From positions 47,849 through 111,848 of IMG/VR virus record IMGVR_UViG_3300020057_000035: DNA of 64,000 nucleotides; one strand, 5' to 3'. Every line of letters starts with the position of its first letter. The first letter of the stretch is position 1. Both the position numbers and the translations under genes were made by a program. Source of the stretch: a virus. Shown here in pieces: positions 6,929-49,214 of the stretch. The notes under the pieces are model-generated. The model was not told the DNA's origin. It searched no databases and saw only the letters and a list, made by a program, of their open reading frames with translations.

Positions 6929-7133
6929 AAGAGACGAAATCGCAAAAGGCACTAATAAAATGCCTTGGGTAGAAAGAGTACCGAACGATCTACTTAAGCA
7001 AAAACCAAAAACAATAGAAAAATGGTATAATAGAGATAGTACTATTAAATGCTTTATTTGTGCATTATCTATAGGTACACTAATTAAAGTTAAAGACGGG
7101 ATTTATACGCATAAAAATTGTCAAGTGAATTAA
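6921..7133 (+). CDS. Hypothetical protein upstream of terminase
   Basis: 70 residues from ATG 6921, chosen over an in-frame ATG at 6861 because it removes a long overlap and follows CAAGG. C-F-I-C near the middle and H-K-N-C at the end could form a zinc site. Its position just before terL is where a small terminase often sits, but no DNA-binding fold is evident. Confidence 0.5.
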   Translation: MFRRDEIAKGTNKMPWVERVPNDLLKQKPKTIEKWYNRDSTIKCFICALSIGTLIKVKDGIYTHKNCQVN

Positions 7134-23301: not shown

Positions 23302-23916
23302 TTATTCTTTAAAGTATAAAATGAATTCTGGATTTATTATTTTGAAACTAAGTCTACCTAGTTCTTTGTCTCTAATAGTATTGTCTTCTGATCTAATTAC
23401 AATACCCTCTGCCCACACATTATTATTTATTGTTGATTTAATTGTTGCTTTTGCAACTAATTCATCTATAGTAAATAATAATAAATCAGTACCTAAAAAG
23501 GGTACGTGTCTTAAGTCATTTATTTCACAAAAGACAAGCATCTCAAGAAAATCTAAATATCTATTTTCTTTTCTTGAGTATACGTTAAATACATATAGAT
23601 CTTGTTTAGAGAGTTTTAGTTTATTTCCTTGTATTCCCGGCCCTACTAATTCTCCTTGAACTACATAGTCATCAGAATATTTAGTTAGAATTGATTTAAG
23701 ATTTAATAGTTTTGCTATTCTCCAATAAGAATTATCTTCTGTTTCTTTTATATCTAAGTTTTTACTACACACATGTAATTCACTGTCTTCTACAAATGCA
23801 GTCATACTTGAGTTATGCACTAATATACCATTTGCAAAAAAACTATGAGTATGTTTTGTTTCTATATCATACTTATTTGAACTACAAGAAATCCTAGTTA
23901 TTTTTTTAATTTTCAT
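23302..23916 (-). CDS. RNA ligase, C-terminal half fused to C-intein (split gene)
   Basis: 204 residues. Residues 1-35 are the C-terminal fragment of a split intein (KYDIETKHTHSFFANGILVH plus Asn35). The extein begins with SSMTAFVEDSELHV, the natural continuation of the ligase nucleotidyl-transfer motif EKVDG at the end of the N-half gene (29138-29992). Further ligase motifs: VVQGELVGPGIQGN (III), AEGIVIRS (IV) and LSFKIIN (V). Trans-splicing would give a ~352-residue Rnl5/DRB0094-like ligase that seals nicked RNA with ATP. It has its own promoter at 24053 and a ~130-base leader, so both halves are transcribed separately. Each half alone should be inactive. Confidence 0.9.
   Translation of the reverse strand: MKIKKITRISCSSNKYDIETKHTHSFFANGILVHNSSMTAFVEDSELHVCSKNLDIKETEDNSYWRIAKLLNLKSILTKYSDDYVVQGELVGPGIQGNKLKLSKQDLYVFNVYSRKENRYLDFLEMLVFCEINDLRHVPFLGTDLLLFTIDELVAKATIKSTINNNVWAEGIVIRSEDNTIRDKELGRLSFKIINPEFILYFKE
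23812..23916 (-). other. Split intein, C-terminal fragment
   Basis: 35 residues starting MKIKKITRIS, ending NGILVHN, with Ser+1. The length matches known split-intein C fragments (~35-40 residues), with block F (YDIETKHTHSFF) and block G present. Partner is at 29138-29443. Confidence 0.9.
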
Positions 23917-24050
23917 TTATTCATTTTTCCTATTTCTTCTAAAATAAAACTATCTAACTCTTCATTGTGATATTAATTGAACCTCACTCGAATTAATCCA
24001 ACCTGTACTAATTACTTTAATATTAGATGTACTCAGGTTACTCCCTTGTG

Positions 24051-24569
24051 CTAGTATATCACCTTTGACTGAGAAATGTCAATAGAGGAGCTTTGCTCGC
24101 GCAAGACAGTAGGAAATGTCCAAGAAGCCGCAGTTAAACGAAAAACAATTTTAGTAGGAACATGGGTTACCCCCCTCTCCCACCTAGATACACTACTTTG
24201 ACTCACCCCTAGTGCTTTAGCGAATCCGCGCTGAGTTTGATGATTTTTTGTTAGGCCAGATGCTCTTAGTTCTATTAACTCTTCTGGCATCATTGGAGGA
24301 AGCAAACAATATTCTCTATTTCTCTCTGCATTAGCACGTTTATATTCTTCCATGCCGTTTATTTGTTCCTTATGGCTTTTCTTTATTAGATTATTGTACA
24401 AATGAAATATATCATAGTTAAATTTACGTGTTGCAAGTATCATCGGCGTAGTTGTGCCTTTTTTATTAGGAAATTGTTCTTCTATGCTCAAGCTACGCTG
24501 TCTCCAAGTTATTAATTTTCTCTTGGAAAAATACCCCATAAGCATACCATCATTGTCTTTAGTCATCAT
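24051..24569 (-). CDS. XRE-family helix-turn-helix regulator
   Basis: 172 residues. A lambda-repressor-like HTH lies near the C-terminal third: TQRGFAKALGVSQSSVSRWE. The N-terminal ~90 residues are of unknown fold and basic. It follows the metalloprotease gene closely. A candidate binder of the CTCACTAATTAATTAGTGAG palindromes at 19014 and 25703, by proximity only. Confidence 0.75.
   Translation of the reverse strand: MMTKDNDGMLMGYFSKRKLITWRQRSLSIEEQFPNKKGTTTPMILATRKFNYDIFHLYNNLIKKSHKEQINGMEEYKRANAERNREYCLLPPMMPEELIELRASGLTKNHQTQRGFAKALGVSQSSVSRWERGVTHVPTKIVFRLTAASWTFPTVLREQSSSIDISQSKVIY
24053..24082 (-). promoter_or_regulatory. Promoter for the RNA ligase C-half
   Basis: TTGACA, 18-base spacer, TATACT, overlapping the 3' end of the XRE gene. 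The 23917-24050 leader contains an open frame (VKGDILAQGSNLSTSNIKV...) broken by a frameshift, probably a gene relic. Confidence 0.7.
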
Positions 24570-24581
24570 TATTAGTTTGTC

Positions 24582-25481
24582 CTAATCCTTCGATATAAGC
24601 GGTATTTTAATGCACTTTACTGCTGGTCGTATGCCGCAAAGTGGCAGTTGGGTAGGTGTTGAAATAGGAGTCAGTGATCCCACTGGAATTAATGTTTCTG
24701 GTGTCCTAGTAGGTGTGAAAGAAAAAGTAGGTGTTCTAGTAGGGGTAGAGGTGCTAAGTGCTATTGTGGATGTTCCTACTGTGCCTGGAGGCGTATTTGC
24801 GGGAGTTCCCGAGCATACATAAACAGCACACACACCAGCAATATCATCAGAATGTGGCACTGTCATAATACCATGATATGAAGCAAACATTACTGCATTT
24901 GTATCTAAAGAATGTCCAAGTCCTGCGCAATGCCCTATTTCGTGCCATAGAACTGTTTTAAGATCTATTCCACCTGATCCCCAATTAGCATTAGAGGATA
25001 TCTCTATATCACATTCATCTGCTCCTGTCCACCAACAAGCAGTAGCTAATACAGTACCAGATATAGGATACCAATTTATAGTATTTTCTCCGTTAGAAGC
25101 AGCACCTCTACATAAATTAGCATTATCTGAAATAGAAGACAATCCTCCATATTGTAAAGATAGGTTTGGTGTTATTCCATTCCAGCTAGTAGTTACTGCG
25201 TTTGATACAACAGCTTCGTCATTTACTATAGTTAGAGATTTTCCTTCTGGATTATATCTAGTTACTATAGGCATTTTACTTCTCACAAAACCAGTTAACA
25301 CATAATTTTCTATGTTTATTTCTTCTTTTTCTAAAGAATAAACATCTATATTAAAAGTAGATCCATCTGCAAATGTTTTAGAGAATGTGTTAAAGTGTGC
25401 TTCTGCTTTAGTCATATTACTAAAAGTAATAAACACACCAAAAAACATAAACAAACTTAATAATAAATAAATATATCTCAT
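24582..25481 (-). CDS. Secreted matrixin-like zinc metalloprotease
   Basis: 299 residues. An N-terminal signal peptide (about 1-28, ending around KAEA) directs export. Zinc motif HEIGHCAGLGH at 180-190 (HExxHxxGxxH) and a Met residue in NAVMFAS match metzincin (M10-like) proteases. The last ~70 residues are a Thr/Ser/Pro-rich linker (TSTPTRTPTFSFTPTRTPET) and a short Cys tail. Such linkers are typical of Chloroflexota secreted proteins, a weak host hint. TGATAGAAT lies six bases before the ATG. Protein-digesting cargo is unusual for a phage; cell-envelope or biofilm degradation is possible. Confidence 0.85.
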   Translation of the reverse strand: MRYIYLLLSLFMFFGVFITFSNMTKAEAHFNTFSKTFADGSTFNIDVYSLEKEEINIENYVLTGFVRSKMPIVTRYNPEGKSLTIVNDEAVVSNAVTTSWNGITPNLSLQYGGLSSISDNANLCRGAASNGENTINWYPISGTVLATACWWTGADECDIEISSNANWGSGGIDLKTVLWHEIGHCAGLGHSLDTNAVMFASYHGIMTVPHSDDIAGVCAVYVCSGTPANTPPGTVGTSTIALSTSTPTRTPTFSFTPTRTPETLIPVGSLTPISTPTQLPLCGIRPAVKCIKIPLISKD

Positions 25482-25505
25482 ATTATTATTCTATCATGTT
25501 GTTTT

Positions 25506-25731
25506 TGTCAATTACTCACTAATTAATTCTACCTCTTACGTCTACTGTATATTACTTTAATGCCCAACCACCACCAACTAATGTTGTTATTGCTAAAATA
25601 ACTCATTGCTTTGCGCGTTCCAAACACCCATGCTCAATAAGAAATTATTATGTGTGGCAGGCGATTGTCAATTCGCCAATAGTGGGAAAAACTTCTCACA
25701 AGCTCACTAATTTATTAGTGAGTAATTGACA
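25506..25731. repeat. 226-bp segment with 23-bp terminal inverted repeats
   Basis: Left end TGTCAATTACTCACTAATTA (25506 onward), right end the inverse complement with one mismatch over 23 bases; the right copy extends to the full CTCACTAAT/ATTAGTGAG palindrome (25703-25722). The interior has a GGCGA/TCGCC hairpin and no convincing gene, only short open frames. No target duplication is visible. Either a MITE-like relic or a pair of regulatory sites, as the same 30-base unit occurs at 19005-19045. Confidence 0.55.
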
Positions 25732-26175
25732 TTAGTGTTCTCCAAAAGCTAATCTGAAATTATTTGGTTTGTATACAGATTCTCTCTGCATCATTCTCTC
25801 CTCTAATTCTGGATTGTGTTTTCTTATCAAAGATAAATACTCTTTGTAAAATACAGAATTGTGTTTTTCTTGTATTCCTACTTTGTAATGAGCTAGTTCA
25901 TGCAAACAAACTATCATTGCATCAATATGATCTTTTCCTATTCTTATAATTATATGTCCATCTCCGAAAGTTGTTCCACTAGAAAAAAACCCGCGTTCTT
26001 CTAATTTTCTAGTTTTAGTTATTGGTCTTATTTTTAGCTCTCTGTTTCCCTCTGATTTCCATTCTATTACAGGAGCAAAGGACTCATTATCAAATTCTTT
26101 TTCCAACAATATATACATAAATTTTTTAATTTTGTAATCGTGAAGCTTACTTACTAATATTTCTTTACTTATCAT
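25732..26175 (-). CDS. SprT-like zinc metallopeptidase
   Basis: 147 residues with CLHELAHYKVG (HExxH zinc motif) followed by HNSVFYKEYLSLI, the layout of SprT/WSS1-like intracellular zincins, which cleave proteins from DNA or act on unknown substrates. No signal peptide. It abuts the DUF1937-like gene (stop and start share bases). Confidence 0.7.
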   Translation of the reverse strand: MISKEILVSKLHDYKIKKFMYILLEKEFDNESFAPVIEWKSEGNRELKIRPITKTRKLEERGFFSSGTTFGDGHIIIRIGKDHIDAMIVCLHELAHYKVGIQEKHNSVFYKEYLSLIRKHNPELEERMMQRESVYKPNNFRLAFGEH

Positions 26176-26534
26176 TAAAATCCATAATTTGGATTAATGT
26201 ATATTATTTTTTTAGATCGTATATTCATGTCTATTAACGTATTCCAATATTTAATTTCTTCTGTTACACCAACACTATAATTCCATCCATCTAGTTTAAG
26301 TATCCACAACTCATCTGCTAAATTAAGCATATGAAAATCGTGCTTTTCCCATAGCTTAAATCCATGTACATCTGGTTCTTTAATAAATGGAACTAGACCA
26401 TGTGAGTGAGAAATAGGGGAATAAATGAAATACCCTTTACTAACATAATAAGCAGCAACTTCACATACTGCTTTTATCCTGTAATCTCTAGTTTCTTGTG
26501 ATTTATGTGAATATGGACTTGCCAAATAAATCAA
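26175..26534 (-). CDS. DUF1937-like nucleoside deoxyribosyltransferase-fold protein
   Basis: 119 residues beginning MIYLASPYSHKSQETRDYRI, then FIYSPISHSHGLV and ADELWILKLDGWNYSVGVTEE. These match the DUF1937 family, related to nucleoside 2-deoxyribosyltransferases (SPYS motif, distal ExE region). Likely acts on a nucleotide or modified base. Overlaps the next gene by 4 bases. Confidence 0.75.
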   Translation of the reverse strand: MIYLASPYSHKSQETRDYRIKAVCEVAAYYVSKGYFIYSPISHSHGLVPFIKEPDVHGFKLWEKHDFHMLNLADELWILKLDGWNYSVGVTEEIKYWNTLIDMNIRSKKIIYINPNYGF

Positions 26535-26824
26535 GTATTTTTTACAGCTAACTGTAGTGCATTCTCAACGCGATCCCAACCTACACCATAGAGATCTCCA
26601 TAAGTCTTTCGAATGTATCTCCATTCTGATAAAGTATCAGCGAGCATCGTTATCAACTCTTCGTGGGTATTGAGGATACGAAACATCTCCCTCAGTATGT
26701 CATCACAAAAGTCTCCATCATCGCGAACAACCTCACATAGTAAAGTGTTTCCTTGTACTATGTATTGAACACCAAATGTAGTAGACTTATAAAGCTTCCA
26801 TACTGTATCATTTTGTTCACTCAC
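26531..26824 (-). CDS. Hypothetical protein
   Basis: 97 residues, acidic, with WKLYKSTTFGVQYIVQGN and a helical C-terminus. Overlaps both neighbours by 4 bases. No family recognised. Confidence 0.55.
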   Translation of the reverse strand: MSEQNDTVWKLYKSTTFGVQYIVQGNTLLCEVVRDDGDFCDDILREMFRILNTHEELITMLADTLSEWRYIRKTYGDLYGVGWDRVENALQLAVKNT

Positions 26825-27129
26825 TTGGTATTTATCACCTTTAATAGCTGAGAGTAAAGATACTCTTGTCTTGAAATTAATTGTTGAAAATCTAAAACTC
26901 TACCTTGATTAGTATATCCATACTTTAGAATGGCTTTAAGGCAATTAGGTAAATCGCTGTAATATCCAATAAAGGACTCTACAGTACCCTCAAGAGCCTC
27001 TTTTGTTTTTAGATTTCTTCTTTGTCTATCGTTTTTTCTGTTTACTTGCCAACCTGTTCCCTCTACTGAACATTCAAATATTACCCACTCATCAATTTCT
27101 AATCTAGTTGCATCTCTTGTTGTTTTCAT
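26821..27129 (-). CDS. Hypothetical protein, leaderless start
   Basis: 102 residues: N-terminal strands (WVIFECSVEGTGWQV), then FIGYYSDLPNCLKAIL and VLDFQQLISRQEYLYSQL, a layout seen in small phage proteins of unknown role. The -10 of the promoter at 27136 ends six bases before the ATG, so the mRNA is probably leaderless. Confidence 0.6.
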   Translation of the reverse strand: MKTTRDATRLEIDEWVIFECSVEGTGWQVNRKNDRQRRNLKTKEALEGTVESFIGYYSDLPNCLKAILKYGYTNQGRVLDFQQLISRQEYLYSQLLKVINTK

Positions 27130-27135
27130 AAGTTT

Positions 27136-27164
27136 ATGTTACTCTCTCTTATTCTGTTTGTCAA
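27136..27164 (-). promoter_or_regulatory. Sigma70-type promoter
   Basis: TTGACA, 17-base spacer, TAACAT, six bases before ATG 27129. It overlaps the 3' end of the upstream gene. Confidence 0.65.
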
Positions 27165-27369
27165 GCGGCTCAAAGAATCTTCCATCTTGGCCGCAATATC
27201 CTAGTCTATTTTGTCGTTGTATTTTTGCAAAATTATAAATTTCTGTAATTTCTCCTGTTGATTTATCTATCTCTTCTTTAATCGCAGAAATATGAGTACA
27301 AAAACTCCATCTGTCTCTGTTTCTAGGCTCTATTTTATAATGTTTACATTCTATACAGATTTTTACCAA
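27139..27369 (-). CDS. Small zinc-binding protein
   Basis: 76 residues with CIECKHY, WSFCTH and LGYCGQDGRFFEP, a four-Cys metal site and the C-G-x-x-G-x-F-F-E-P ending seen in small phage/bacterial ribbon proteins of unknown function. Confidence 0.6.
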   Translation of the reverse strand: MVKICIECKHYKIEPRNRDRWSFCTHISAIKEEIDKSTGEITEIYNFAKIQRQNRLGYCGQDGRFFEPLDKQNKRE

Positions 27370-27393
27370 TCTTTTATATTCTCCGGTTCTAAA

Positions 27394-27750
27394 TCAATCA
27401 TTTATTCTATCATTTATTCTATTCACTGCTTCTAAGTATTCACTTACTATTCGCGCCCAATAAAAGTATCTTTTTTTAACATATAATATTGCTATATTAA
27501 AATATTCTGTATTATGTAATCTAACAATATATGCTGCTATTTCCACATCATTAGGATTGTATTTATTTTTACTATTCCATCCCATTTTTTTAACCCAATT
27601 AAACACTACTACATCAGATTTATTTAATAGAAACTCATATACTTCTGATTGTTTTATTTTTTCTATTGCATCATTGGCGTGTCTACAATTTAATACTAGC
27701 TTATTAAGTTTCTTAACATCTGTTCTCGGGGCTAGTACTATAGCACTCAT
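27394..27750 (-). CDS. Hypothetical protein
   Basis: 118 residues, largely helical and basic (VLNCRHANDAIEKIKQSEVY...YWARIVSEYLEAVNRI). No family recognised. Confidence 0.55.
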   Translation of the reverse strand: MSAIVLAPRTDVKKLNKLVLNCRHANDAIEKIKQSEVYEFLLNKSDVVVFNWVKKMGWNSKNKYNPNDVEIAAYIVRLHNTEYFNIAILYVKKRYFYWARIVSEYLEAVNRINDRIND

Positions 27751-27755
27751 ATTAT

Positions 27756-28040
27756 TTAATCCTCTGGGAGGATATAATTATTATCGTTTGCTTTAAGTTG
27801 CGCTAGCATTTCTGCTATCTTAGGGTTTTTGTGCTTCATAAGAGGACTATTATGGTTAGTCTTAGAGTACCACGCTTGAAAACCTCCAGTTACTGTAGTA
27901 GATATATGGAAGGCAATATACCCTTTATCTAATAACTGTTTAGGTATATACCAAAATATGTCATTGTTTTCTAATGAATCAAAAGCGGTAAGAGGGAGAA
28001 ATTTCTCTAAATCTTCGTATAGTTTTTCAATATTAATCAT
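27756..28040 (-). CDS. Hypothetical protein
   Basis: 94 residues, alpha/beta, with FHISTTVTGGFQAWYSKTNH in the centre. The ATG lies inside the upstream TnpB relic. No family recognised. Confidence 0.5.
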   Translation of the reverse strand: MINIEKLYEDLEKFLPLTAFDSLENNDIFWYIPKQLLDKGYIAFHISTTVTGGFQAWYSKTNHNSPLMKHKNPKIAEMLAQLKANDNNYILPED

Positions 28041-28158
28041 AAATATATATTCTTAATTCTAAACCATGTTTGTTTAGTTTCCCACACTCAGGACAAAGTT
28101 GTGTTGAAGGAAAACTTCTTGAAACGAGTATTGTCTCTGATTTCTTTTGTAAATCATT
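28033..28158 (-). pseudogene. C-terminal fragment of a TnpB
   Basis: An open frame without a start, beginning at the stop of the kinase gene: ETILVSRSFPSTQLCPECGK then LNKHGLELR. The pattern F-x-S-x-x-C-x-x-CG-x-x-x-K-x-x-L-x-x-R matches the zinc-ribbon half of the intact TnpB at 14477 (FTSQTCSKCGNIKKKELNER). It stops before the second Cys pair. Confidence 0.6.
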
Positions 28159-29014
28159 AAAATTCCTTACCGCTTTGATTTACGTCAAACACAAATAAAC
28201 CCATCCTTCTCCACATTCTCACAACTCTTGGTCGATCATCAATTACAAACAAAACATTCCAAAAATCTTTAATATAGTTATTAAAAATTTCTCTTTTTAC
28301 AATATCATCTGCTCTATGATCTCCTTCTTTTCTCATAAACAAAGCTAAATATTCTACATTGTGTTTCTTGAGCCATTGTTCTGTCTCTTCTCTGAATTCA
28401 GAAGTTCTACCAGACAAAAGTATTATTTCATATGGTAAAGCAGAAATAATATTGTATACAGGCAAATTTAATTCATCATTTATGAAATCTCTCTTGTAGG
28501 GATTTTTATCTCCACCAAAAATCGAGAGTGTGCCGTCGATGTCCACAGTTACGGCTTTTTCTAGTTCTGTGTTTGGTACATATTGTTTTAGTTCTTGAAC
28601 CTGATCTCCATATCGTTTATCATAATCTCTAATTACTTTTTCCCCTACTGATTTATCTCTTAACGAATCGCGTCTGATTGCTTCTTCTACTTCAATAGGT
28701 ACTTGAATAATTTGCATTCCAATATTAGGGTCAATCAATTGTGCAAGCGCAGAAATATGAATAATAGCGTTACCAAAATTAGTATTATCTACTACTACTG
28801 TTTGATTATTCTCAATACCAATTCTGATAATCTCATCTTGAATAAGATTTACAATACGTTCATTTGGTTTACTGTGTCTGGAGTCATGAAGCATGGATCT
28901 TATGTCGTCTTTTGAAACCCTGAGTGATGTGTCTGGTAATTTACTTACTATTTCTCTTGCTTTAGTACTTTTTCCTGCGGCAATTCCCCCTTGCATTACA
29001 ATTATAGTAGACAT
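28157..29014 (-). CDS. pnk: Polynucleotide 5'-kinase / 3'-phosphatase
   Basis: 285 residues. The N-terminal kinase has P-loop GGIAAGKST (residues 9-17) and DDIRSMLHDSRHSKPNE, as in T4 Pnkp. The C-terminal half is a HAD phosphatase with VDIDGTLSIFGG, LLSGRT and VIDDRPRVVRMWRRMGL. It heals broken RNA ends (removes 3'-phosphate, adds 5'-phosphate) for the ligase. The gene lies between the ligase halves, 124 bases after the N-half, which supports an RNA repair unit of the T4 type that counters host anticodon nucleases. Confidence 0.92.
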   Translation of the reverse strand: MSTIIVMQGGIAAGKSTKAREIVSKLPDTSLRVSKDDIRSMLHDSRHSKPNERIVNLIQDEIIRIGIENNQTVVVDNTNFGNAIIHISALAQLIDPNIGMQIIQVPIEVEEAIRRDSLRDKSVGEKVIRDYDKRYGDQVQELKQYVPNTELEKAVTVDIDGTLSIFGGDKNPYKRDFINDELNLPVYNIISALPYEIILLSGRTSEFREETEQWLKKHNVEYLALFMRKEGDHRADDIVKREIFNNYIKDFWNVLFVIDDRPRVVRMWRRMGLFVFDVNQSGKEF

Positions 29015-29137
29015 TTCTTATATTCCTCATATTTTTTTAAATCTTTATCTAAAAATTTCATTGTTTTATTCTCTAGTAGTTCGTCTTATTTGTCCTATCC
29101 CCGGAAGGTATTCCATTTAGATATATTATTGTTTCCA

Positions 29138-29443
29138 CTATAATTGATCAACTAACATTAAAAGATCCCCCACCTTTAAAAGATCTGCTCTCCTATAACA
29201 ATTCAATTCAGGAACCCAGACCTTGTGATTACCAGTTAAGGTTATATTTGTTCCGTTCTCTAATTCAATTTCATACCAATCATTTGATTTTGAACCTATT
29301 GAATGCCCAACAACATCATCCCAGAACACTTCTTCTTTTTCAGTGTCAAAAGACTTTATTTTACCAGTATATTTAATATCACAAACTTCTTTTATAGTCT
29401 TTGGTCCATCCTCTGTATCTATTACAGCACAGTCCGAAAGACA
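29138..29443 (-). other. Split intein, N-terminal fragment
   Basis: 101 residues with Cys1, an A block, a B block containing the NHK variant of the TxxH motif, and an ending at DLLMLVDQL, the usual break point where an endonuclease domain would sit. No endonuclease is attached to either half. Confidence 0.9.
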
Positions 29444-29992
29444 GCCATCAACTTTCTCTGTGACGTAGATAGGAACGCCAGAATGCCTCTGTAGCACAGT
29501 AGGAACACTCTGTATTCGTGTTTCGTCTGTTTTCGATATGAAACTAGGGAAAGATCCTCGCACGAGTCCAGAGAGCGATCCAATTAAAGGTATCTCATAT
29601 TTATGAATCCCCATTAACTCGGTTACATCCGTTCCTTCTTCAAGAATATCTTGTGTAAATCCATAATTAGACATGAAACTTGATAAATCAGAAATAGGTA
29701 AACATAAGCCTTGTGACACAGATCCGCGCAAGCGAACCGTACGTAATCTGTATCCTTCTTTTGTTTCTCCATTTACATTCATAGTTTTTCTTCCGTCTTT
29801 TTCCATGAATTCAAATAGGGTGTGTATAGGTAAAAAAGCATCAGGTTCAATAAATACAACTGTATCATTTACATTAAATTTGCCTTTTTGTACGCACAAA
29901 TTCCAGCCCAAAACAACCGCTATTTCTAGCAGATCAGCGTTGGGGTGTTTTTTTATTTCTTTAATTTTCTGGATGCTTGCGATTTTTCTCAA
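29138..29992 (-). CDS. RNA ligase, N-terminal half fused to N-intein (split gene)
   Basis: 284 residues. Residues 1-100 resemble the N-terminal OB-like domain of Rnl5/PHA02142-type ligases (MRKIASIQKIKEIKKHPNAD, RTVRLRGSVSQGLCLPI). Residues 179-183 are EKVDG, with Lys180 the expected AMP-accepting lysine. At Cys184 a 101-residue split-intein N fragment begins (CLSDCAVIDTEDGPKTIKEV; block B TLTGNHKVWV) and runs to the stop. The partner half is 5.2 kb downstream at 23302-23916. TTG start behind AAGGAG; promoter at 30015. Confidence 0.92.
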   Translation of the reverse strand: MRKIASIQKIKEIKKHPNADLLEIAVVLGWNLCVQKGKFNVNDTVVFIEPDAFLPIHTLFEFMEKDGRKTMNVNGETKEGYRLRTVRLRGSVSQGLCLPISDLSSFMSNYGFTQDILEEGTDVTELMGIHKYEIPLIGSLSGLVRGSFPSFISKTDETRIQSVPTVLQRHSGVPIYVTEKVDGCLSDCAVIDTEDGPKTIKEVCDIKYTGKIKSFDTEKEEVFWDDVVGHSIGSKSNDWYEIELENGTNITLTGNHKVWVPELNCYRRADLLKVGDLLMLVDQL

Positions 29993-30014
29993 AATTAAGA
30001 TGCTCCTTGTTTGT

Positions 30015-30043
30015 ATCTTAACTGAAACTTAGTATTTTGTCAA
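30015..30043 (-). promoter_or_regulatory. Promoter for the RNA ligase N-half
   Basis: TTGACA, 17-base spacer, TAAGAT, within the end of the upstream gene and about 22 bases before TTG 29992. Confidence 0.7.
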
Positions 30044-30643: not shown

Positions 30644-33133
30644 TTAGCCAACAGATCCATCCATTTGTAGCTCTATTAATCTATTTAGTTCTACAGCATA
30701 TTCCATTGGTAGTTGTTTTACGATTGGTTCTATAAAGCCATTAACAATCATTTTTGCGGCGGAATCTTCACTCATACCTCTACTCATAAGATAAAATAAT
30801 TGATCTTCACCAAGTTTCGAGACATACGCTTCGTGCTGAATATGTACATCTGATGAATCTATTTCCATCGTCGGATACGTGTCCGAGCGAGAAGTTTCAC
30901 CTACGAGAAGCGCATCACATCTTACATTCGATTTAATGTTTTCACAATTATCATATACTTTAAGTAATCCACGATAACTCGTTCTTCCACCATCAATACT
31001 TACTGATTTTGAAACAACTGTTGAAGTAGTATTAGATGCGCTATGAATTACTTTTCCACCAGCGTCTAAATGTTGTCCTTTTCCAGCAACAGCAAGAGAA
31101 AGTATTTCTCCGTGTGCTCTTTCTCCCATTAAATAAATGCTGGGATACTTTAGAGTTAAGCAACTTCCTCCGTTGAAATCTGTCCATTCCATAACTGAAT
31201 CTTCATATGCAACTGCGCGTTTAGTAACAAGATTATATACATTATTAGACCAATTTTGAATTGTTGTATACCTTACTCTTGCGCCTTTTTTAACTATTAT
31301 TTCTACTACAGCACTGTGTAATGATTCAGAACTATACACGGGGCTGGAACAGTTGTGAACAACAAAACCAGAAGCTAAATAACTATTAGGAAAATCAACA
31401 TTTAAATTATAAACAGGCTCTGAAATATCTCTAGTAGATATTTTTTTAATAGGAACTAGAAAATATTCTCCAGCGTCCCGTACTTCTCGTGAACCATTAC
31501 CCCCTTCTGTCCATTGAACTTGATACAATGCGTGACGCATTATATGCCTACCTAAAATTTCTCCTGACCCAGCTACTCGTGACATACTAATAGTAGAATA
31601 AATATCTAATGTAGCCATAATTGATTGAAGCTGAAGTGCCCACGTTCGAGAGGTAGTGTGTGCTCTTTTCCAATCTACATTTTTTCTTTTGATAACATTA
31701 CCATCACCATACATATATGTTTCTACCAAATTTTTAAGAAATTCTTTATTTTGTCCCATTAAGACAGAAGATAGTTTTTTGCTATATGATCTAGTTCCAA
31801 TATGATTTTTCATTGCATCATATCCTTCGTTTGTATAAACAAGAACTCTTCCCTCATGTTTTTTCTTGTCATAATAAACTGATCCGCTAGATCCATATAA
31901 ATATTTACAAATACTTTGAACTTCTTCAATATATTGTGTTTCATTAATATGAAAGGAGAAACTCAAAGCTTTGTATTTATTACATAATTGCGCAGATCCT
32001 TCAGCAAGATAATATCCAGCTAATCTAGCAAACTCTATAGGCATGTTAATATTTGACTTAATGTGTTTTGGTTTAGGGAACACTAAAAAGTCTCCATCAA
32101 GTACATCTTTTGCTTTAACCCATTCAGGAATAGAATTTATTAGTGATGGGCTATTAACTTCAGGTTTATTTTGCTTACGTTGTTTACGTTTTATTAACAC
32201 TTTAAGTCTTGGAACAATCAACAAGGGGTGTTCTCCCGTAACTGAAAAAGCACTATTTGGTGATATTGGTTTAAATGTAAATAGTGTTCCAGAAAAATCT
32301 CGTACTTGTGTAGCATTAACTCGGACAGGGCTACCGTTTTGATCTAATACATGATCTCCGACTTTTACATCTTCAATTCCAGACCAACTACCGTCCGCCA
32401 TGGATATTGATTCTCCCGCTATAAGACACCCTTCAAGGTAGTGGACTTGACTATCTTCATCAGCAATAATCAATGTTCTTTCGAATTGTCCCATTACTTC
32501 TGTATTGATTCTAAAATATGCCTGTAAAGGAATATCCACTTTTACACCTTTTGGTATATAAATAAAACTGCCCCCTGACCAACAGGCGCTATTAAGTGCG
32601 GCGTATTTATTATCTCCGGGAGGTATTATTGTACTAAAATATTCTCTAAGTAAATCTGGATATTCTATTAGTGCTTGATCTGTACTTAAAAATATAACAC
32701 CAAGTTTTTCAAGATCTTCCCTTAATTTATGATAAATAACAGTAGAATCCATTTGCGCTCCAACGCCAGCCAAATACTTCTTTTCTGCTTCTGGTACCCC
32801 TAATTTATCAAAAGTTGTTTTGATATATTCTGGTACATCTTCCCAAGAACTTTCGTCTTTATCAGAAGCTGTTACATAATACCTTATGTTATCAAAGTCG
32901 ATATTTTCTAGTTGATTTGTGCTTGTCCACGTTGGATTTTTTTGTTTATAAAATAAATCAAGTGATTTAAGTCTAAATTTTCTCATCCACTCCGGTTCAT
33001 TTTTCATATCAGATATTGTATTAATAATATCAGAACTTAAACCCTTATTAGATTTAAATACAGGAGGGGTGTCATCGTGGAAACCATACTTGGTTTCGTA
33101 ATTTTCTTCTTTTACTAATGTAGCACTGTTCAT
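30644..33133 (-). CDS. sufB: SufB Fe-S cluster scaffold protein with intein
   Basis: 829-residue precursor; splicing out residues 236-594 leaves 470 residues, normal for SufB. SufB with SufC and SufD assembles Fe-S clusters. Hallmarks: GDNKYAALNSACWSGGSFIYIPKGV, HYLEG-CSSPVYSSESLH at the splice joint, and the C-terminal SDTYPTMEIDSSDVHIQHEA. No sufC, sufD or sufS is in the window, so it would use host partners or unseen genes. It may support the predicted Fe-S proteins in this genome (Cas4-like nuclease, UDG domain on PolA). The adjacent HAD gene is 4 bases upstream. Confidence 0.95.
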   Translation of the reverse strand: MNSATLVKEENYETKYGFHDDTPPVFKSNKGLSSDIINTISDMKNEPEWMRKFRLKSLDLFYKQKNPTWTSTNQLENIDFDNIRYYVTASDKDESSWEDVPEYIKTTFDKLGVPEAEKKYLAGVGAQMDSTVIYHKLREDLEKLGVIFLSTDQALIEYPDLLREYFSTIIPPGDNKYAALNSACWSGGSFIYIPKGVKVDIPLQAYFRINTEVMGQFERTLIIADEDSQVHYLEGCLIAGESISMADGSWSGIEDVKVGDHVLDQNGSPVRVNATQVRDFSGTLFTFKPISPNSAFSVTGEHPLLIVPRLKVLIKRKQRKQNKPEVNSPSLINSIPEWVKAKDVLDGDFLVFPKPKHIKSNINMPIEFARLAGYYLAEGSAQLCNKYKALSFSFHINETQYIEEVQSICKYLYGSSGSVYYDKKKHEGRVLVYTNEGYDAMKNHIGTRSYSKKLSSVLMGQNKEFLKNLVETYMYGDGNVIKRKNVDWKRAHTTSRTWALQLQSIMATLDIYSTISMSRVAGSGEILGRHIMRHALYQVQWTEGGNGSREVRDAGEYFLVPIKKISTRDISEPVYNLNVDFPNSYLASGFVVHNCSSPVYSSESLHSAVVEIIVKKGARVRYTTIQNWSNNVYNLVTKRAVAYEDSVMEWTDFNGGSCLTLKYPSIYLMGERAHGEILSLAVAGKGQHLDAGGKVIHSASNTTSTVVSKSVSIDGGRTSYRGLLKVYDNCENIKSNVRCDALLVGETSRSDTYPTMEIDSSDVHIQHEAYVSKLGEDQLFYLMSRGMSEDSAAKMIVNGFIEPIVKQLPMEYAVELNRLIELQMDGSVG
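31352..32428 (-). other. SufB intein (LAGLIDADG type)
   Basis: 359 residues from Cys of EG-C to Asn of VVHN, Cys+1 (CSSPVY). Block A CLIAGESISMADGSWSGIED, block B FSVTGEHPLLIV, helices LAGYYLAEGS (Glu in place of Asp) and VETYMYGDGN. The EGC insertion point of SufB is a known intein site in bacteria. It could convert SufB synthesis into a redox- or splicing-controlled step, which is inference. Confidence 0.93.
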
Positions 33134-37908: not shown

Positions 37909-38326
37909 CTAGTATATTTTCTAACATCGGTTTTACTTGTATTTCCCAATTTAATCCACCTAAACCGCATCCTAACTTTGGTAATGCAATTTTATCGTCT
38001 TTTGAAACATGCTCACTTACTAAAATAGCATTTTGTTTAATTAGTTCAATAGAAGAAGAGTCTTTCCAATGTATTTTAGTAGGAAAGCATATTAAGGATT
38101 TTGGTTTTCCGTTTATATCAGAAGTGGTTATTGCTTTAGGCTTATCTTTTTTATATTGTATCGCCTTGCCATATAAGTACTGTAGTCTTGAATATTTATC
38201 AGATGCTTGCTTAGCCAAACCTGCTCCCATAACAGCAGTTCCATCTTTTCTGATTTGACAATTTGTGGGTATTATGATATAGTCACAATCTATTTCCCAA
38301 ATATCTATCCCAGCTACAGTAATCAA
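37883..38326 (-). CDS. Macro-domain ADP-ribose-phosphate phosphatase-like protein
   Basis: 147 residues. IIIPTNCQIRKDGTAVMGAG and ALPKLGCGLGGLNW match macro domains of the Poa1/ADP-ribose-1''-phosphate phosphatase type. These bind ADP-ribose and clean up 2'-phosphate tRNA-repair by-products or remove ADP-ribosyl marks. Relevant beside an RNA repair set, or as a counter to host ADP-ribosylating defence; the choice is open. Confidence 0.85.
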   Translation of the reverse strand: MITVAGIDIWEIDCDYIIIPTNCQIRKDGTAVMGAGLAKQASDKYSRLQYLYGKAIQYKKDKPKAITTSDINGKPKSLICFPTKIHWKDSSSIELIKQNAILVSEHVSKDDKIALPKLGCGLGGLNWEIQVKPMLENILDGRFIVCV

Positions 38327-40875
38327 TTAGAAAAATAAACAGGATACAGGGCCTCCAGACCTCTTTTTTCGCTCATCACAAGCACAGTTTGTGATGGTTT
38401 ACTTATTTTACCATATGCCTTAAGGTACCAGTTGCTTCCGCCGTCAATCGTGCCATTCTGACATACTGTGATTCCTCCGACTCTGAAACTAGCGAAATCA
38501 TGCCTGTGTCCCGTAAGTACTAACTCGGGTGTGCATTTAAATATGTTTGATAAAGCCCATTGTGGTAGTAATCTTTGTAGATCCCACACTGGTCCTCTCC
38601 ATTGATCTCCATGCATCATTACTACATCGTGACTTAATGAGTTAAGTTTACCCCACCAATTTTCGTGTATATTCCATTTTATATTTGATTGATTTATACA
38701 TTTATCTTGCGCCCACCAAGCTAACATTGTATCAAAGTTGTCTTCTGGATCAGCATAATCATTTTTACCATTTGGTCTACCATGATTACCGGGAACACTA
38801 TCTACTATTACTTCTGGAAAATAACTTGCCATGTCCATAGCTAATGATGCTACTAATCTTGCTGCCATTGGTATTTGTCTTGTTATTCTATGTGAATTAG
38901 CTGTCTTATCTAACCCAGAAACGTTTTGTCCAGCGTAAATAAAACAGTTATGAGTAACAACACCATCTGCTATAAAGGTATGATCTTGATCGACGGTTAT
39001 GTTATACACAGGCTCTGCTATTTCACTTTTGTTTATCTCTAACACCTTAGAATATCTACACCCTAAAGGAGGATCTACGACTCTTCCTTTATCACAAACT
39101 GGATAAGTGGTAACTCTCCTAGTCCTTTTTTTGTTGCCCCACCTTTTATTATATATAGGTGTATAAGAGCCTACTTTCATATTTAAATCTGAGGAGTTAC
39201 ACATAGAAACCCACAACACAGACTCCATTGATCCTCCTTGTGGAAGAGGACATATTCTAGTTTGTGATCTAATTCTAGATGTTAATAATCCCGAAGTGAC
39301 ACACAATTCATTAATATCTCTAATAAGATCTTTATTAGTAGAGCTATAAACTATTTGTCCTAGTTTATTAACGTATCCATCTGAATCTAAATATCCCCTA
39401 AGAAATGCTAATTTATACTCATTAGATAAATTAAATACCCATTTTGGAACCCGTTTAGTTCTAGCATATCCAGCTACACCAGCATTAACCATTATCTCTG
39501 CTGCTTGTTTTGAACTAAACCTAGATCCGCTTTCATTTAGACCAATGTGTATTTGTTCTCCGTTGTGTTTTATAAATAATTGTTTACATATATCCCAATA
39601 TCTATCCATGTATCCAATATTTTTATTATCATGAGATAAATAAATACCAGAAGGATTTCCTTTTATGTCTCTTGTTAAACACCCATTCCCTAAGTAAAAA
39701 CCCAATATTTCCATTAACTCAATAGATGCTGTTCCAACCGGAGTATAATTACTTTCAGATTTAACATCATCAACTATACATAATAAATCCCCCTCTCTAA
39801 CATCAGAGGCTCTGATGTATTCATGTGTGGTTATGTATCTATTTCTCTTTGGAAGAACATGAGTAGATATTTTAGTTCTTCGTTGTACCAAAATAGGATG
39901 TTCTGCATTAGCTTTAATTGTTTTCTCTATAGATCCAATTGTATATATTGGATCTATCCCAGTCATTTCAGAAGCAATTACTTCTCTTGCTTTAAACCCA
40001 CTCCCTGTATATGCCCAAACATAATCTCCTTTTTGTATATTTTGAATTTCTATTGGACCTGTCGGCGTAGACACTATAGATCCAGCAGGTAAGCATCCTT
40101 CGACGAGATCTCCAAGTAAGACTAACCTACCAGTATTGATTGGACAACCAGACGCTTTGAAGTGTTCTGTGATTTTTCTTGCTGCGTCCATTAGTCTAGG
40201 TATTCTTTCTTCTTCCATTATTTTAATACCTATCCCATTTTCCATTTTTCCTATTTGCCAATCAGAAGCCACTACAATAATTTCTCTCTCACTCTTTGAA
40301 GAATTATTTTTATTAGGAATTGGAACGATAGGAAATCTTAATTCTGGGGTTGAGTCATGTAGGTCTTTTAATTCGAATCTCATAAAGTCTCGTAATGAGG
40401 TTAAGTATGTATTTTTTCTTATTAATTGATTTTTTTGTTCAAATGCTCTTTTTGCCATTTCAAGATTAGTAGCATCGGGCAACAGAGATCCCTCTTCTTG
40501 AAGTATCTCTTCTGTAGTCCATTCTAAATCAGAATTATGGCACACAGAAGAACAAAAGAAGTTATTAGCATTTACTGGAACAAATCTATTTATGCAAAGT
40601 TTATTTTTACATCGTCTTGTTATTGATGTTTCTGTAATTTCTTCTTTTATTATTTTTGAAATTCCTGCTCCCTTTCCTCTAGAAATAAACTTACCATGTA
40701 CTCTTTTTACATATTCTGATACGGATTTTGCACTCTTAATTACACCGAAATTTGTAGCTATACTTTCAGATATGTTTTTTCCTATATGTACATCATCACT
40801 ATTATTGATCTCTTGATCAATAAAATCAGATATAAGTTTTTTTGTTTCTTTATCACACTCTTTATAAAGAATCAA
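38323..40875 (-). CDS. Calcineurin-like metallophosphoesterase with intein
   Basis: 850-residue precursor; 467 after removing residues 261-643. The N-terminal ~120 residues contain a zinc-like CKNKLCINRFVPVNANNFFC. The catalytic part has ASDWQIGK, GDLVEG-CFIYAGQ, PGNHGRPNG, MMHGDQ and TGHRHD, the metal-binding motifs of calcineurin-like phosphatases/nucleases. Similar phage proteins occur in replication regions. A DNA or nucleotide substrate is likely. TTG start overlapping the upstream gene. Confidence 0.9.
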   Translation of the reverse strand: MILYKECDKETKKLISDFIDQEINNSDDVHIGKNISESIATNFGVIKSAKSVSEYVKRVHGKFISRGKGAGISKIIKEEITETSITRRCKNKLCINRFVPVNANNFFCSSVCHNSDLEWTTEEILQEEGSLLPDATNLEMAKRAFEQKNQLIRKNTYLTSLRDFMRFELKDLHDSTPELRFPIVPIPNKNNSSKSEREIIVVASDWQIGKMENGIGIKIMEEERIPRLMDAARKITEHFKASGCPINTGRLVLLGDLVEGCLPAGSIVSTPTGPIEIQNIQKGDYVWAYTGSGFKAREVIASEMTGIDPIYTIGSIEKTIKANAEHPILVQRRTKISTHVLPKRNRYITTHEYIRASDVREGDLLCIVDDVKSESNYTPVGTASIELMEILGFYLGNGCLTRDIKGNPSGIYLSHDNKNIGYMDRYWDICKQLFIKHNGEQIHIGLNESGSRFSSKQAAEIMVNAGVAGYARTKRVPKWVFNLSNEYKLAFLRGYLDSDGYVNKLGQIVYSSTNKDLIRDINELCVTSGLLTSRIRSQTRICPLPQGGSMESVLWVSMCNSSDLNMKVGSYTPIYNKRWGNKKRTRRVTTYPVCDKGRVVDPPLGCRYSKVLEINKSEIAEPVYNITVDQDHTFIADGVVTHNCFIYAGQNVSGLDKTANSHRITRQIPMAARLVASLAMDMASYFPEVIVDSVPGNHGRPNGKNDYADPEDNFDTMLAWWAQDKCINQSNIKWNIHENWWGKLNSLSHDVVMMHGDQWRGPVWDLQRLLPQWALSNIFKCTPELVLTGHRHDFASFRVGGITVCQNGTIDGGSNWYLKAYGKISKPSQTVLVMSEKRGLEALYPVYFSN
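38947..40095 (-). other. Metallophosphoesterase intein (LAGLIDADG type)
   Basis: 383 residues from Cys of VEG-C to Asn of VTHN, Cys+1 (CFIYAG). Block A CLPAGSIVSTPTGPIEIQNI, block B KANAEHPILV, helices LGFYLGNGC (Asn in place of Asp) and LRGYLDSDGY. It interrupts the GDxxEG metal-ligand motif, so the enzyme is inactive until spliced. One of two nuclease centres looks dead. Confidence 0.93.
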
Positions 40876-41375: not shown

Positions 41376-42185
41376 CTAATCCTTTACCATATCTAAAGCA
41401 TACTCTACTGCTTTAAGTGTTTCTGGGTCTTTATCTTGTACTCTGTAACACAAAGACTCTTTATAGCAGGCTCTACACTGTTTACTTGTTCTAACAAAAG
41501 GTGGCTCTATTAGTTCACCCCTCTTACTGTATTCTCTTGCTACCATTGGAAGAGCAAACAAATCATTCATTAGCTTTGTATCAGGCTTAACATATCTTAT
41601 TTTATACTCTTGAGTATCTGTATTCTCAAATAAGAATATTCCTACATCTGATGTCTTATACTCTGTGTCTTTGAATATTTTAATATATTGAGCTAATTGA
41701 TACATATATGATCTTTCTTGTATAGCAAACATTCTAGCCATTTGTTCTAGATCTTCTGTTTGTTCTGGAAGACTTTTATATCTAAATGCGTTCATTGTTT
41801 TTATTTCTAAAATAAAATTTTCATCAGTGAGTGGATTTTTTACTATGACATCGCACTCTCCACTCCAACCTATTTCTTCTACTTTCAGTCTAACATTTTT
41901 GGCTACCAGTATTCCTGATGCTTCAAATTCATCATTCCATCTATCGTGTGCGGCTGTACCGTTTCTTGTTCTTCTTAGGTTTTGTGGTTTCATTTTTTCT
42001 CTGAAACCTAACATAGAAAATTGAATAGCTCTTGAGCAATTACCACCAGAACTAGATGGTCTAATAGATAACACGGGTGGAGAATTTAGACCATTTTTAT
42101 TGCCTTCTCTAAATAGTTGTTGATCTAAGTTTTCTCCTACCCAATCTTTGTCTCTTATTTGTTTTAGAAACCTACTTATTCCCAT
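41376..42185 (-). CDS. Cas4-like PD-(D/E)xK exonuclease with Fe-S cysteines
   Basis: 269 residues. Nuclease core: NGTAAHDRW, WSGECDVIVKNP (Asp) and FILEIKTMN (ExK). Cys50 (GGNCSR) and a C-terminal C-x2-C-x5-C (CRACYKESLC, 237-246) give the four-cysteine pattern that holds a [4Fe-4S] cluster in Cas4/AddB nucleases. Likely a recombination exonuclease acting with RecA. Not near any CRISPR array. A probable client of the phage Fe-S proteins. Confidence 0.88.
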   Translation of the reverse strand: MGISRFLKQIRDKDWVGENLDQQLFREGNKNGLNSPPVLSIRPSSSGGNCSRAIQFSMLGFREKMKPQNLRRTRNGTAAHDRWNDEFEASGILVAKNVRLKVEEIGWSGECDVIVKNPLTDENFILEIKTMNAFRYKSLPEQTEDLEQMARMFAIQERSYMYQLAQYIKIFKDTEYKTSDVGIFLFENTDTQEYKIRYVKPDTKLMNDLFALPMVAREYSKRGELIEPPFVRTSKQCRACYKESLCYRVQDKDPETLKAVEYALDMVKD

Positions 42186-42534
42186 TAAATTTATCCATTC
42201 TGTCTGAGATCGTCCACATATGCTCTTCTACAAAACTTTCTATAATCAACAGAAGCTGTTCTTTATCTTTTAATTGTACTTCATTTATTCTCAAAATAGG
42301 AACACCGGCTATTTCTAAAAACCAAAGATCTCTATTTTTGTCATGAAGTTTTTGTTTCGGAGAATCATGCATTGGTCCATCATATTCAAACCCTAAATGC
42401 ACTTCTTCTACATAACAATCAAGAGTGTATTTTCCTATTTGCTTCTCGTCTTCTACACCAAACCCTATGTCAGAAATAATAGAATGTAATTCTCTATGTG
42501 GTTTAGTTAAAGATGTTGGTTGTGTGACAGACAT
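42172..42534 (-). CDS. Small endonuclease-fold protein (DUF559/Vsr-like)
   Basis: 120 residues. GKYTLDCYVEEVHLGFEYDG, followed by KNRDLWFLEIAGVPILRI, matches the very-short-patch-repair/DUF559 endonuclease fold with an acidic D...E core. Adjacent to RecA and the Cas4-like nuclease. May nick recombination intermediates; not certain. Confidence 0.7.
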   Translation of the reverse strand: MSVTQPTSLTKPHRELHSIISDIGFGVEDEKQIGKYTLDCYVEEVHLGFEYDGPMHDSPKQKLHDKNRDLWFLEIAGVPILRINEVQLKDKEQLLLIIESFVEEHMWTISDRMDKFNGNK

Positions 42535-43592
42535 TAAAAAGAAGACTCTTCTATAGGAAGACTTAAATCATCTTTTAAATATTGCTCTAACTCTGGAGTA
42601 GATTTAATAAGATCTATAAAACCAGCTTTTCCCATAATCTTATTTTCTTTATAATCATAGTATGCTCCGCGTTTAATTATGATACCTCTTTCTACTGCCT
42701 CTGTTACCATACTCCAAATATAATCAATTTTACCTGTTGCGAACATAAAAGGTATTTCTGTTTTTTGAAAAGGAACTCCTTGTTTGTTTTTTTCAACAAT
42801 CAATTCAAGCATATATCCAACTTTAGCTTTACTAGCTCCTACACCTTCCTCAATCCATTCTCCTCTCTTAACTCTAATTTTTTGCCAAGCCCAATAAGCA
42901 GAAGAACGCCCCCCTGGTTGTGTTTCTGGATTACCATACATAGTTGGTGAAACTCTTGTTTGATTTATAATCAAAAGCATGGTACCTTCATTCTCAGCCA
43001 TTGCATTGTTTAATCCCATTTGATTCAAAGAAGCATTAGCCATAGGTTGAGGTTTTTCAAACATCTCATTTAAATCTTTATTTAAAGACTTAGAGGAAGC
43101 TATAGAAGCAAGAGAATCTATAACAATTACACCTACTCTCTTTCTTATCCAGAAAATTACAGCTTCCCAGACCTCTTCTCCTGTTTTTGGTCTTACAACA
43201 AGGACATCATTTGAGTTTACCCCAACCTTAGCTGACCACTCAGGAACCCAAGAATGCTCTACATCTATGTAGATAATGCTTAGATTTTGATCCTGTGCTG
43301 CCTTCATAGCTAATAATGCTACTACTGTTTTTCCAGCAGAGGCATCTCCAAATATCATATTTACTCTATCGAACGCTAAGCCACCATCTAAAAGATTATC
43401 TAGGGTTGGAATACCAAAAGGAAGTAACTTAAGCTCAAACTTTTCATTGTCTCCCCAGTTTAATTTAGAATTAAGTTCTTGTTCAATTTGTTTTTGTTGT
43501 TCTTTAAGATTTTCGATTGAAAGCAGGTGAGAAGAACCCTCACCCACTTCTTTATTTTTAGATTTAACCACGAACTGCTTTTGATAGTTCAC
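42534..43592 (-). CDS. recA: RecA/UvsX-like recombinase
   Basis: 352 residues; GTG start. Walker A GDASAGKT (about 79-86), YIDVEHSWVPEWSAKVGV, Walker B VGVIVIDSLAS, and L2-like INQTRVSPTMYGNPETQPGG. Promotes strand exchange in recombination-dependent replication and repair. Lacks the long C-terminal domain of cellular RecA. It overlaps the upstream gene by 29 bases. Confidence 0.93.
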   Translation of the reverse strand: MNYQKQFVVKSKNKEVGEGSSHLLSIENLKEQQKQIEQELNSKLNWGDNEKFELKLLPFGIPTLDNLLDGGLAFDRVNMIFGDASAGKTVVALLAMKAAQDQNLSIIYIDVEHSWVPEWSAKVGVNSNDVLVVRPKTGEEVWEAVIFWIRKRVGVIVIDSLASIASSKSLNKDLNEMFEKPQPMANASLNQMGLNNAMAENEGTMLLIINQTRVSPTMYGNPETQPGGRSSAYWAWQKIRVKRGEWIEEGVGASKAKVGYMLELIVEKNKQGVPFQKTEIPFMFATGKIDYIWSMVTEAVERGIIIKRGAYYDYKENKIMGKAGFIDLIKSTPELEQYLKDDLSLPIEESSF

Positions 43593-48781: not shown

Positions 48782-49214
48782 CTTCTACCTCCTCTGGATC
48801 TAATTTCTCTAGCATCCTAATTGCTTTATCACTGTCGTCTGTGTCTATCCAATATCCTATCCAATAATCAATAGCTTGCTGTAATCTTGATCCATCTTTT
48901 TCTTTATATGCTATTAATGAATACTTTAACGCTCTGTCTGGTACAGGAACTTTTGATCTAATAGATGAGATAGTTCCTATGTGTAATGCTGTTTGTGGTT
49001 TAAACCTCTCTTTATACATATCTACTGTTAATAAACACAATAGTTCTATTTGATGTTTATCTGGTATTAATTTAATTAATTCTTTTACCTTACTTCTAGT
49101 TACTGCATACTCTAATTGTAACAATTTTCTATTATATTTTTGCAATAATCTATCATAAATAATATCAGCTAGTTCTTGGTCTTGTGGTTTAGTTTTTTTG
49201 GACGAGACTGCCAT
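48768..49214 (-). CDS. Hypothetical protein upstream of dnaB
   Basis: 148 residues, helical (ADIIYDRLLQKYNRKLLQLE..., IDYWIGYWIDTDDSDKAIRM). Overlaps polA (26 bases) and dnaB. Could be a helicase loader or accessory by position; no motif supports it. Confidence 0.6.
   Translation of the reverse strand: MAVSSKKTKPQDQELADIIYDRLLQKYNRKLLQLEYAVTRSKVKELIKLIPDKHQIELLCLLTVDMYKERFKPQTALHIGTISSIRSKVPVPDRALKYSLIAYKEKDGSRLQQAIDYWIGYWIDTDDSDKAIRMLEKLDPEEVEDYQT

What the first reader, a model, noticed from the sequence alone, without database searches (positions are those of the whole stretch)
23302..29992. Fractured RNA ligase joined by a split intein, halves 5.2 kb apart
The gene at 29138-29992 ends in a 101-residue intein N fragment placed directly after EKVDG, the ligase nucleotidyl-transfer motif. 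The gene at 23302-23916 begins with a 35-residue C fragment followed by SSMTAF and motifs III-V of the same ligase family. Seen: both fragments, both ligase halves, separate promoters (30015-30043 and 24053-24082), and a dozen unrelated genes between. Known: fractured genes with split inteins exist in phage metagenomes for helicases, NrdJ, IMPDH and others. I do not recall an RNA ligase case. Inference: ligase activity requires trans-splicing, which may delay or gate RNA repair.
Basis: partly seen in the sequence, partly recalled or inferred. Interest (0 to 1): 0.95.

Follow-up and report, generated by a model that had tools for sequence, protein, structure and literature searches.

The report
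Phage RNA ligase split between genes
A bacterial virus encodes one RNA-repair enzyme as two separate half-genes, each tipped with half of a self-splicing protein (a split intein) that should weld the halves together after translation; two other phages have the same broken enzyme with a cutting-enzyme gene still sitting in the break.

Summary
Window 29138-29992(-) encodes residues 1-183 of an Rnl5-type RNA ligase plus a 101-aa intein N fragment, placed three residues after the nucleophilic Lys180 (EKVDG|C). Window 23302-23916(-), 5.2 kb away, encodes a 35-aa intein C fragment plus the remaining 169 residues. The joined 352-aa product aligns without a gap at the junction to continuous ligases and to the Naegleria ligase structure. 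All class-1 splicing residues are present. The intein belongs to a clan of phage split inteins, not to the six cis inteins of the same contig. I found two further Rnl5 genes broken at the same site, each with a homing-endonuclease-like gene between compact halves, and one with a complete cis intein there. The window therefore looks like a late state: endonuclease lost, ten genes between the halves, a promoter-like site for each half. I found no published intein-split RNA ligase in the library I could search; the original fractured-gene paper was not available. The "gating" idea is unproven, and the contig also carries a continuous T4 Rnl1-like ligase. Pnkp, a usual partner in RNA repair, lies next to the N half and beside continuous Rnl5 genes in relatives.

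The parts
29444..29992 (-). Rnl5 RNA ligase N-extein, residues 1-183: OB fold (PHA02142) and start of the nucleotidyltransferase domain, ending in motif I EK180VDG
   Evidence: AF2 model matches Naegleria RNA ligase
29141..29443 (-). Intein N fragment, 101 aa: C1 LSDC..., block B TGNH at intein positions 70-73, ends at a natural stop
   Evidence: the N-gene model matches Npu DnaE split intein 4qfq
23812..23916 (-). Intein C fragment, 35 aa: MKIKK...YDIETKHTHSFFANGILVHN, terminal His-Asn
23305..23811 (-). Rnl5 RNA ligase C-extein, 169 aa from +1 Ser (SSMTAF...), with the later catalytic motifs (joined-product E237, E318, K340)
   Evidence: AF2 model matches Naegleria RNA ligase E 1.2e-14
30015..30043 (-). 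Promoter-like TTGACA-17-TAAGAT ending 22 nt before the N-half start codon, same type as the element repeated at the left end of the contig; AAGGAG at 30003-30008
24053..24082 (-). Promoter-like TTGACA-18-TATACT with extended -10, about 137 bp upstream of the C-half gene
28157..29014 (-). Pnkp-like polynucleotide kinase-phosphatase, directly downstream of the N half; adjacent to continuous Rnl5 genes in L023, L054, L078
24051..28040 (-). Nine further ORFs (76-299 aa) between Pnkp and the C half: HTH regulator, matrixin-like metalloprotease, WLM-like, DUF1937 and small unknowns; none is a recognisable homing endonuclease

Best explanation
The two genes are the halves of one Rnl5-type RNA ligase, interrupted in motif I (KxDG|S) by a naturally split class-1 intein. 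Translated separately, the IntN and IntC fragments associate, the intein excises itself and joins G183 to S184, giving a continuous 352-aa ligase; neither half alone has a complete active site (Lys180 and its motif are on the N half, the later catalytic motifs on the C half). The enzyme probably works with Pnkp, encoded next to the N half, in RNA repair. The locus most likely descends from a compact 'fractured gene' (N half, homing endonuclease, C half), as still seen in two other phages, that lost its endonuclease and had its halves separated to 5.2 kb. Shown by sequence: the parts, the same-site relatives, the clan of split inteins, the absence of a recognisable endonuclease. Inferred: splicing, ligase activity, the order of evolutionary steps.
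For: Gap-free junction and full-length alignment of the joined product. The residues of Naegleria ligase targeted in the deposited mutant structures (K121, R149, K170, D172 / E227, E312, K326) are all kept: K131, R159, K180, D182 on the N half; E237, E318, K340 on the C half. Intein C1, TGNH, C-terminal HN and +1 Ser present. Split intein 45% and 42% identical to those of two other fractured Rnl5 ligases, and grouped (82/91 support, drawn as an open fork) with L161, L174 and NrdJ-1 apart from the six resident cis inteins. Fractured Rnl5 with an endonuclease-like gene between the halves in L195 and L196; full-size cis intein at the same site in L107. No other PF09414 ligase in the contig; no endonuclease of this family in the contig. 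Pnkp beside continuous Rnl5 in L023, L054, L078.
Against: No expression or splicing data exist. The contig (111.8 kb, linear, completeness unknown) comes from a metagenome, so a misassembly between the halves is not formally excluded; I found no second genome with the 5.2-kb layout. Motif Ia has Lys where most of the family has Arg (CSKN for CSRN). Base composition of the halves differs more than in any of 53 continuous ligases (GC 0.380 against 0.276), so the halves may have had different recent histories. The fractured ligases are not shown to be one clade, so homology of the break by descent is not established.
Confidence: 0.88

Rival explanations
1. The halves are decaying remnants: the phage has a continuous Rnl1 ligase, and the fractured Rnl5 no longer makes an active enzyme.
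For: A continuous Rnl1-like ligase is encoded at contig 41801-42898; compositional difference between the halves; motif Ia Arg replaced by Lys.
Against: Both ORFs are intact, all key catalytic and splicing residues are kept on both halves, each gene has a promoter-like site, and the C-half model still folds like a ligase with high confidence. Two other intein-bearing genomes, one of them with a fractured Rnl5, also carry an Rnl1.
Confidence: 0.07
2. The split layout is an assembly artefact: in the real genome the ligase carries a compact fractured locus or a cis intein.
For: Metagenomic contig; only one genome shows the 5.2-kb separation.
Against: IntN ends at a natural stop at the length of other split inteins (98-105 aa) and IntC has its own start; genes between run on one strand without breaks; a misjoin would have to cut cleanly between an intact IntN gene and an intact IntC gene.
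Confidence: 0.04
3. The separation is regulatory: two promoters make the ligase an AND gate that delays RNA repair.
For: Promoter-like sites before both halves, more than expected by chance.
Against: Both sites are sigma70-like; no sign of different timing; a second continuous ligase exists; in relatives the fracture accompanies an endonuclease-like gene, a non-regulatory origin.
Confidence: 0.05

Closest known systems
Fractured genes with split inteins and free-standing EDxHD/Vsr homing endonucleases (Dassa et al. 2009; paper not held, cited through PMC12350094 and PMC6892783)
   Same: A conserved enzyme broken in two at an intein site, with IntN and IntC on separate genes in N-to-C order on one strand; the split intein is related to NrdJ-1
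   Different: Host enzyme is an RNA ligase; no endonuclease between the halves; halves 5.2 kb and ten ORFs apart
Fractured Rnl5 ligases found here in IMGVR 3300023174_000197 (L195) and 3300003358_000005 (L196)
   Same: Same enzyme family, same insertion point KxDG|C, split inteins 42-45% identical
   Different: Halves about 1 kb apart with one 332-366 aa endonuclease-like gene between, directly abutting or overlapping the C half
Rnl5 with a cis intein, IMGVR 3300036766_000678 (L107)
   Same: Same ligase family and insertion site
   Different: One 705-aa ORF with a 363-aa full-size intein, placed apart from the split inteins (30% identity)
Cyanobacterial split DnaE (Ssp/Npu DnaE)
   Same: Two distant genes, split intein, no endonuclease in the break (general knowledge); the N-gene model matches Npu DnaE
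   Different: Different host enzyme, cellular chromosome, far greater separation (general knowledge)
Naegleria gruberi RNA ligase / Rnl5 nick-sealing ligases
   Same: Domain order, catalytic residues, full-length sequence and fold match of the two halves
   Different: Continuous polypeptide

Membership tests
Rnl5-type RNA ligase | N-terminal OB fold (PHA02142) followed by the nucleotidyltransferase domain | tested here: met
Rnl5-type RNA ligase | Catalytic residues K170, D172, R149, K121, E227, E312, K326 (Naegleria numbering) | tested here: met
   All conserved, distributed over both halves
Rnl5-type RNA ligase | Seals nicked RNA duplexes | not testable with these tools
   Needs purified spliced protein
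Naturally split class-1 intein | Cys1, block B TxxH, C-terminal His-Asn, +1 Ser/Thr/Cys, fragments on separate genes at one extein site | tested here: met
Naturally split class-1 intein | Sequence kinship with known naturally split inteins | tested here: met
   NrdJ-1 E 1e-8; grouped with five split inteins (moderate support)
Naturally split class-1 intein | Trans-splicing activity | not testable with these tools
   Needs co-expression
Canonical fractured gene (Dassa type) | Free-standing homing endonuclease gene between the halves | tested here: not met
   None of the ORFs in the gap is a recognisable homing endonuclease, and endonuclease-like proteins of four fractured relatives find no match in the contig
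T4 Pnkp/Rnl1 tRNA-repair pair | Ligase half of the pair is Rnl1 | tested here: not met
   The split ligase is Rnl5; a separate Rnl1-like gene exists elsewhere in the contig

The most novel reading that the evidence does not exclude
Separation of the halves under two promoters has been kept because it regulates RNA repair: ligase appears only when both transcripts are made and the proteins are spliced.
Probability: 0.06. Interest if true: 0.85.

Novelty: new variant of a known kind. Interest (0 to 1): 0.6.

Why it matters
Several fast split inteins used in biotechnology come from phage fractured genes (general knowledge). This adds an RNA-repair enzyme as host and, more usefully, one insertion site (motif I of covalent nucleotidyltransferase ligases) at which four states can be compared: uninterrupted, cis intein, split intein with an endonuclease-like gene, and split intein with dispersed halves and no endonuclease. 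That makes the proposed route from a mobile intein to a DnaE-like permanently split gene open to test. It also offers a new natural split intein whose IntN is acidic (net -9) and IntC basic (net +4).

Tried and rejected
Gating of RNA repair: no support. Descent of the split intein from one of the contig's own inteins: rejected, 20-24% identity against 42-45% to other fractured ligases. A hidden endonuclease remnant in the contig: none found. Mosaic origin of the halves: separate trees looked different at first, but the N-half data do not reject the clade seen with the C half (AU p 0.50), so no claim is made. A single clade of fractured ligases: neither supported nor rejected (p 0.55 for N, 0.069 for C). 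Searches for close relatives of the contig through each half and Pnkp gave no near genome. Pattern scans of genome contigs mostly hit chance frames; real same-site inteins there were in other ligase families (L130, L152, L153). The Dassa 2009 and Carvajal-Vallejos 2012 papers are not held, so I could not check their lists of host enzymes.

Full report
OBSERVATION. The N gene (29138-29992, minus) holds ligase residues 1-183 and a 101-residue intein N fragment that begins directly after EKVDG. The C gene (23302-23916, minus) holds a 35-residue intein C fragment and 169 ligase residues starting SSMTAF. Pfam recognises the OB fold and Hint/intein domain on the first gene and the intein and RNA_ligase domains on the second. 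The joined product aligns along its whole length to continuous phage ligases, with no gap at the junction (nearest L002, 353 aa, 47%), and to the Naegleria gruberi RNA ligase (E 8e-54). Predicted structures agree: the C gene's ligase part folds like Naegleria ligase (E 1e-14) with IntC disordered, and the N gene matches Naegleria ligase and the Npu DnaE split intein. The intein pair matches the NrdJ-1 split intein.

WHERE IT IS BROKEN. The break lies three residues after the nucleophile Lys180. The residues mutated in the Naegleria structures fall on both sides: K131, R159, K180, D182 on the N half and E237, E318, K340 on the C half. From the known mechanism of covalent nucleotidyltransferases, neither half should be active alone (inference). 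One conserved motif Ia Arg is Lys here.

RELATIVES. In the 80 best Rnl5 relatives in IMG/VR the ligase match is a single uninterrupted stretch; that ranking favours continuous genes. Scans for an intein junction at motif I found two more Rnl5 ligases split at the same residue. In L195 (contig 3300023174_000197) and L196 (contig 3300003358_000005) the halves flank one gene of 366 or 332 aa. These two genes are homologous to each other (E 7e-45) and to the genes in two other split ligase-like loci, L161 (a DNA-ligase-like gene) and L174; three of the four match DUF7487, two also DUF559 weakly, and they share an (I/L)E(V/F/I)NGxxWHA motif, which fits the EDxHD/Vsr homing endonucleases described for fractured genes (PMC12350094). 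L107 has a complete 363-aa cis intein at the same site. Other ligase families carry same-site cis inteins (G008, G009, L130). Motif I of ligases is thus a repeated intein target.

INTEIN KINSHIP. The window's split intein is 45% and 42% identical to those of L195 and L196, 39% to L174, 33% to L161 and NrdJ-1, 30% to the L107 cis intein, and 20-24% to the six cis inteins in the same contig. The six split inteins group together (support 82/91, an open fork), apart from the resident inteins. The NrdJ-1, gp41-1 and IMPDH-1 sequences used in that comparison were written from general knowledge.

WHAT IS DIFFERENT IN THE WINDOW. No endonuclease lies between the halves, and none of the four endonuclease-like proteins finds a match in the contig. 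Ten ORFs of at least 76 aa separate the halves. Each half has a promoter-like site. Three minus-strand sites with at least 11 of 12 consensus matches were found in the region against 0.33 expected, one of them before the C half. The N-half site is TTGACA-17-TAAGAT, the type found about 40 times at the left end of the contig, and it ends 22 nt before the start codon. In L195 and L196 the C half overlaps or abuts the endonuclease-like gene, so a separate promoter would have been useful once that gene was lost (inference). GC of the N extein exceeds that of the C extein by 0.104, more than in any of 53 continuous ligases, which suggests that the halves have drifted in different surroundings or that one was moved.

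FUNCTION. The N half is directly upstream of Pnkp. Pnkp is also next to a continuous Rnl5 in L023, L054 and L078, which supports a joint role in RNA repair (inference). The contig also encodes a continuous Rnl1-like ligase (contig 41801-42898), and so do two of the four intein-bearing genomes checked. The split enzyme is therefore not the phage's only RNA ligase, and the claim that RNA ligation as such waits for trans-splicing does not hold.

KNOWN OR NEW. Split-intein genes in phages are known (PMC6892783 describes a PolB case with an HNH endonuclease gene between the halves). In the papers I could search, no RNA ligase case appeared, but the key 2009 paper was not held. As I recall its description, the canonical fractured gene has a free-standing endonuclease in the break; that feature was tested here and not met. 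I file this as a naturally split intein gene and a variant of the fractured-gene arrangement, with an RNA ligase as host.

VERDICT.

Noticed in passing
window 56-6004 (+): Ribonucleotide reductase gene (1982 aa) holds three separate inteins (340, 344 and 357 aa); the second has an HNH-type match, the others LAGLIDADG-type or related homing-endonuclease matches.
   Followed up: partly
window 7118-9625, 30644-33133, 38323-40875: Three more genes carry full-size inteins: terminase large subunit, SufB and a probable metallophosphoesterase, so with the split one this contig has seven inteins.
   Followed up: partly
contig G000 1-23000 (L011 and start of L012): About 40 dispersed copies of a sigma70-like promoter element (TTGACAcaaat...gcTAAGAT/TATGAT, then a Shine-Dalgarno-like stretch) before tiny minus-strand ORFs, in a region of about 47% GC against 33% elsewhere; possibly an early-gene promoter array.
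   Followed up: partly
contig G000 41801-42898 (L013:1801-2898): Continuous T4 Rnl1-like RNA ligase, 365 aa, motif I EKKDGSL.
   Followed up: yes
window 49189-52713 (-): DNA polymerase A with an N-terminal uracil-DNA-glycosylase-superfamily domain in the same ORF (1174 aa).
   Followed up: no
window 24582-25481 (-): Matrixin-like metalloprotease with a likely signal peptide and a Pro/Thr-rich tail, between the ligase halves.
   Followed up: no
L161 (IMGVR_UViG_3300028549_002475) 1-2300: DNA-ligase-like gene split by an intein right after its KLDG motif, with a 299-aa endonuclease-like gene between the halves.
   Followed up: partly
L164, L165, L173, L175, L177, L178, L187: A recurrent phage gene of 160-180 aa ending in an intein N fragment after T(T/Q)KLDG; probably another split ligase-like family, C halves not looked for.
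   Followed up: no
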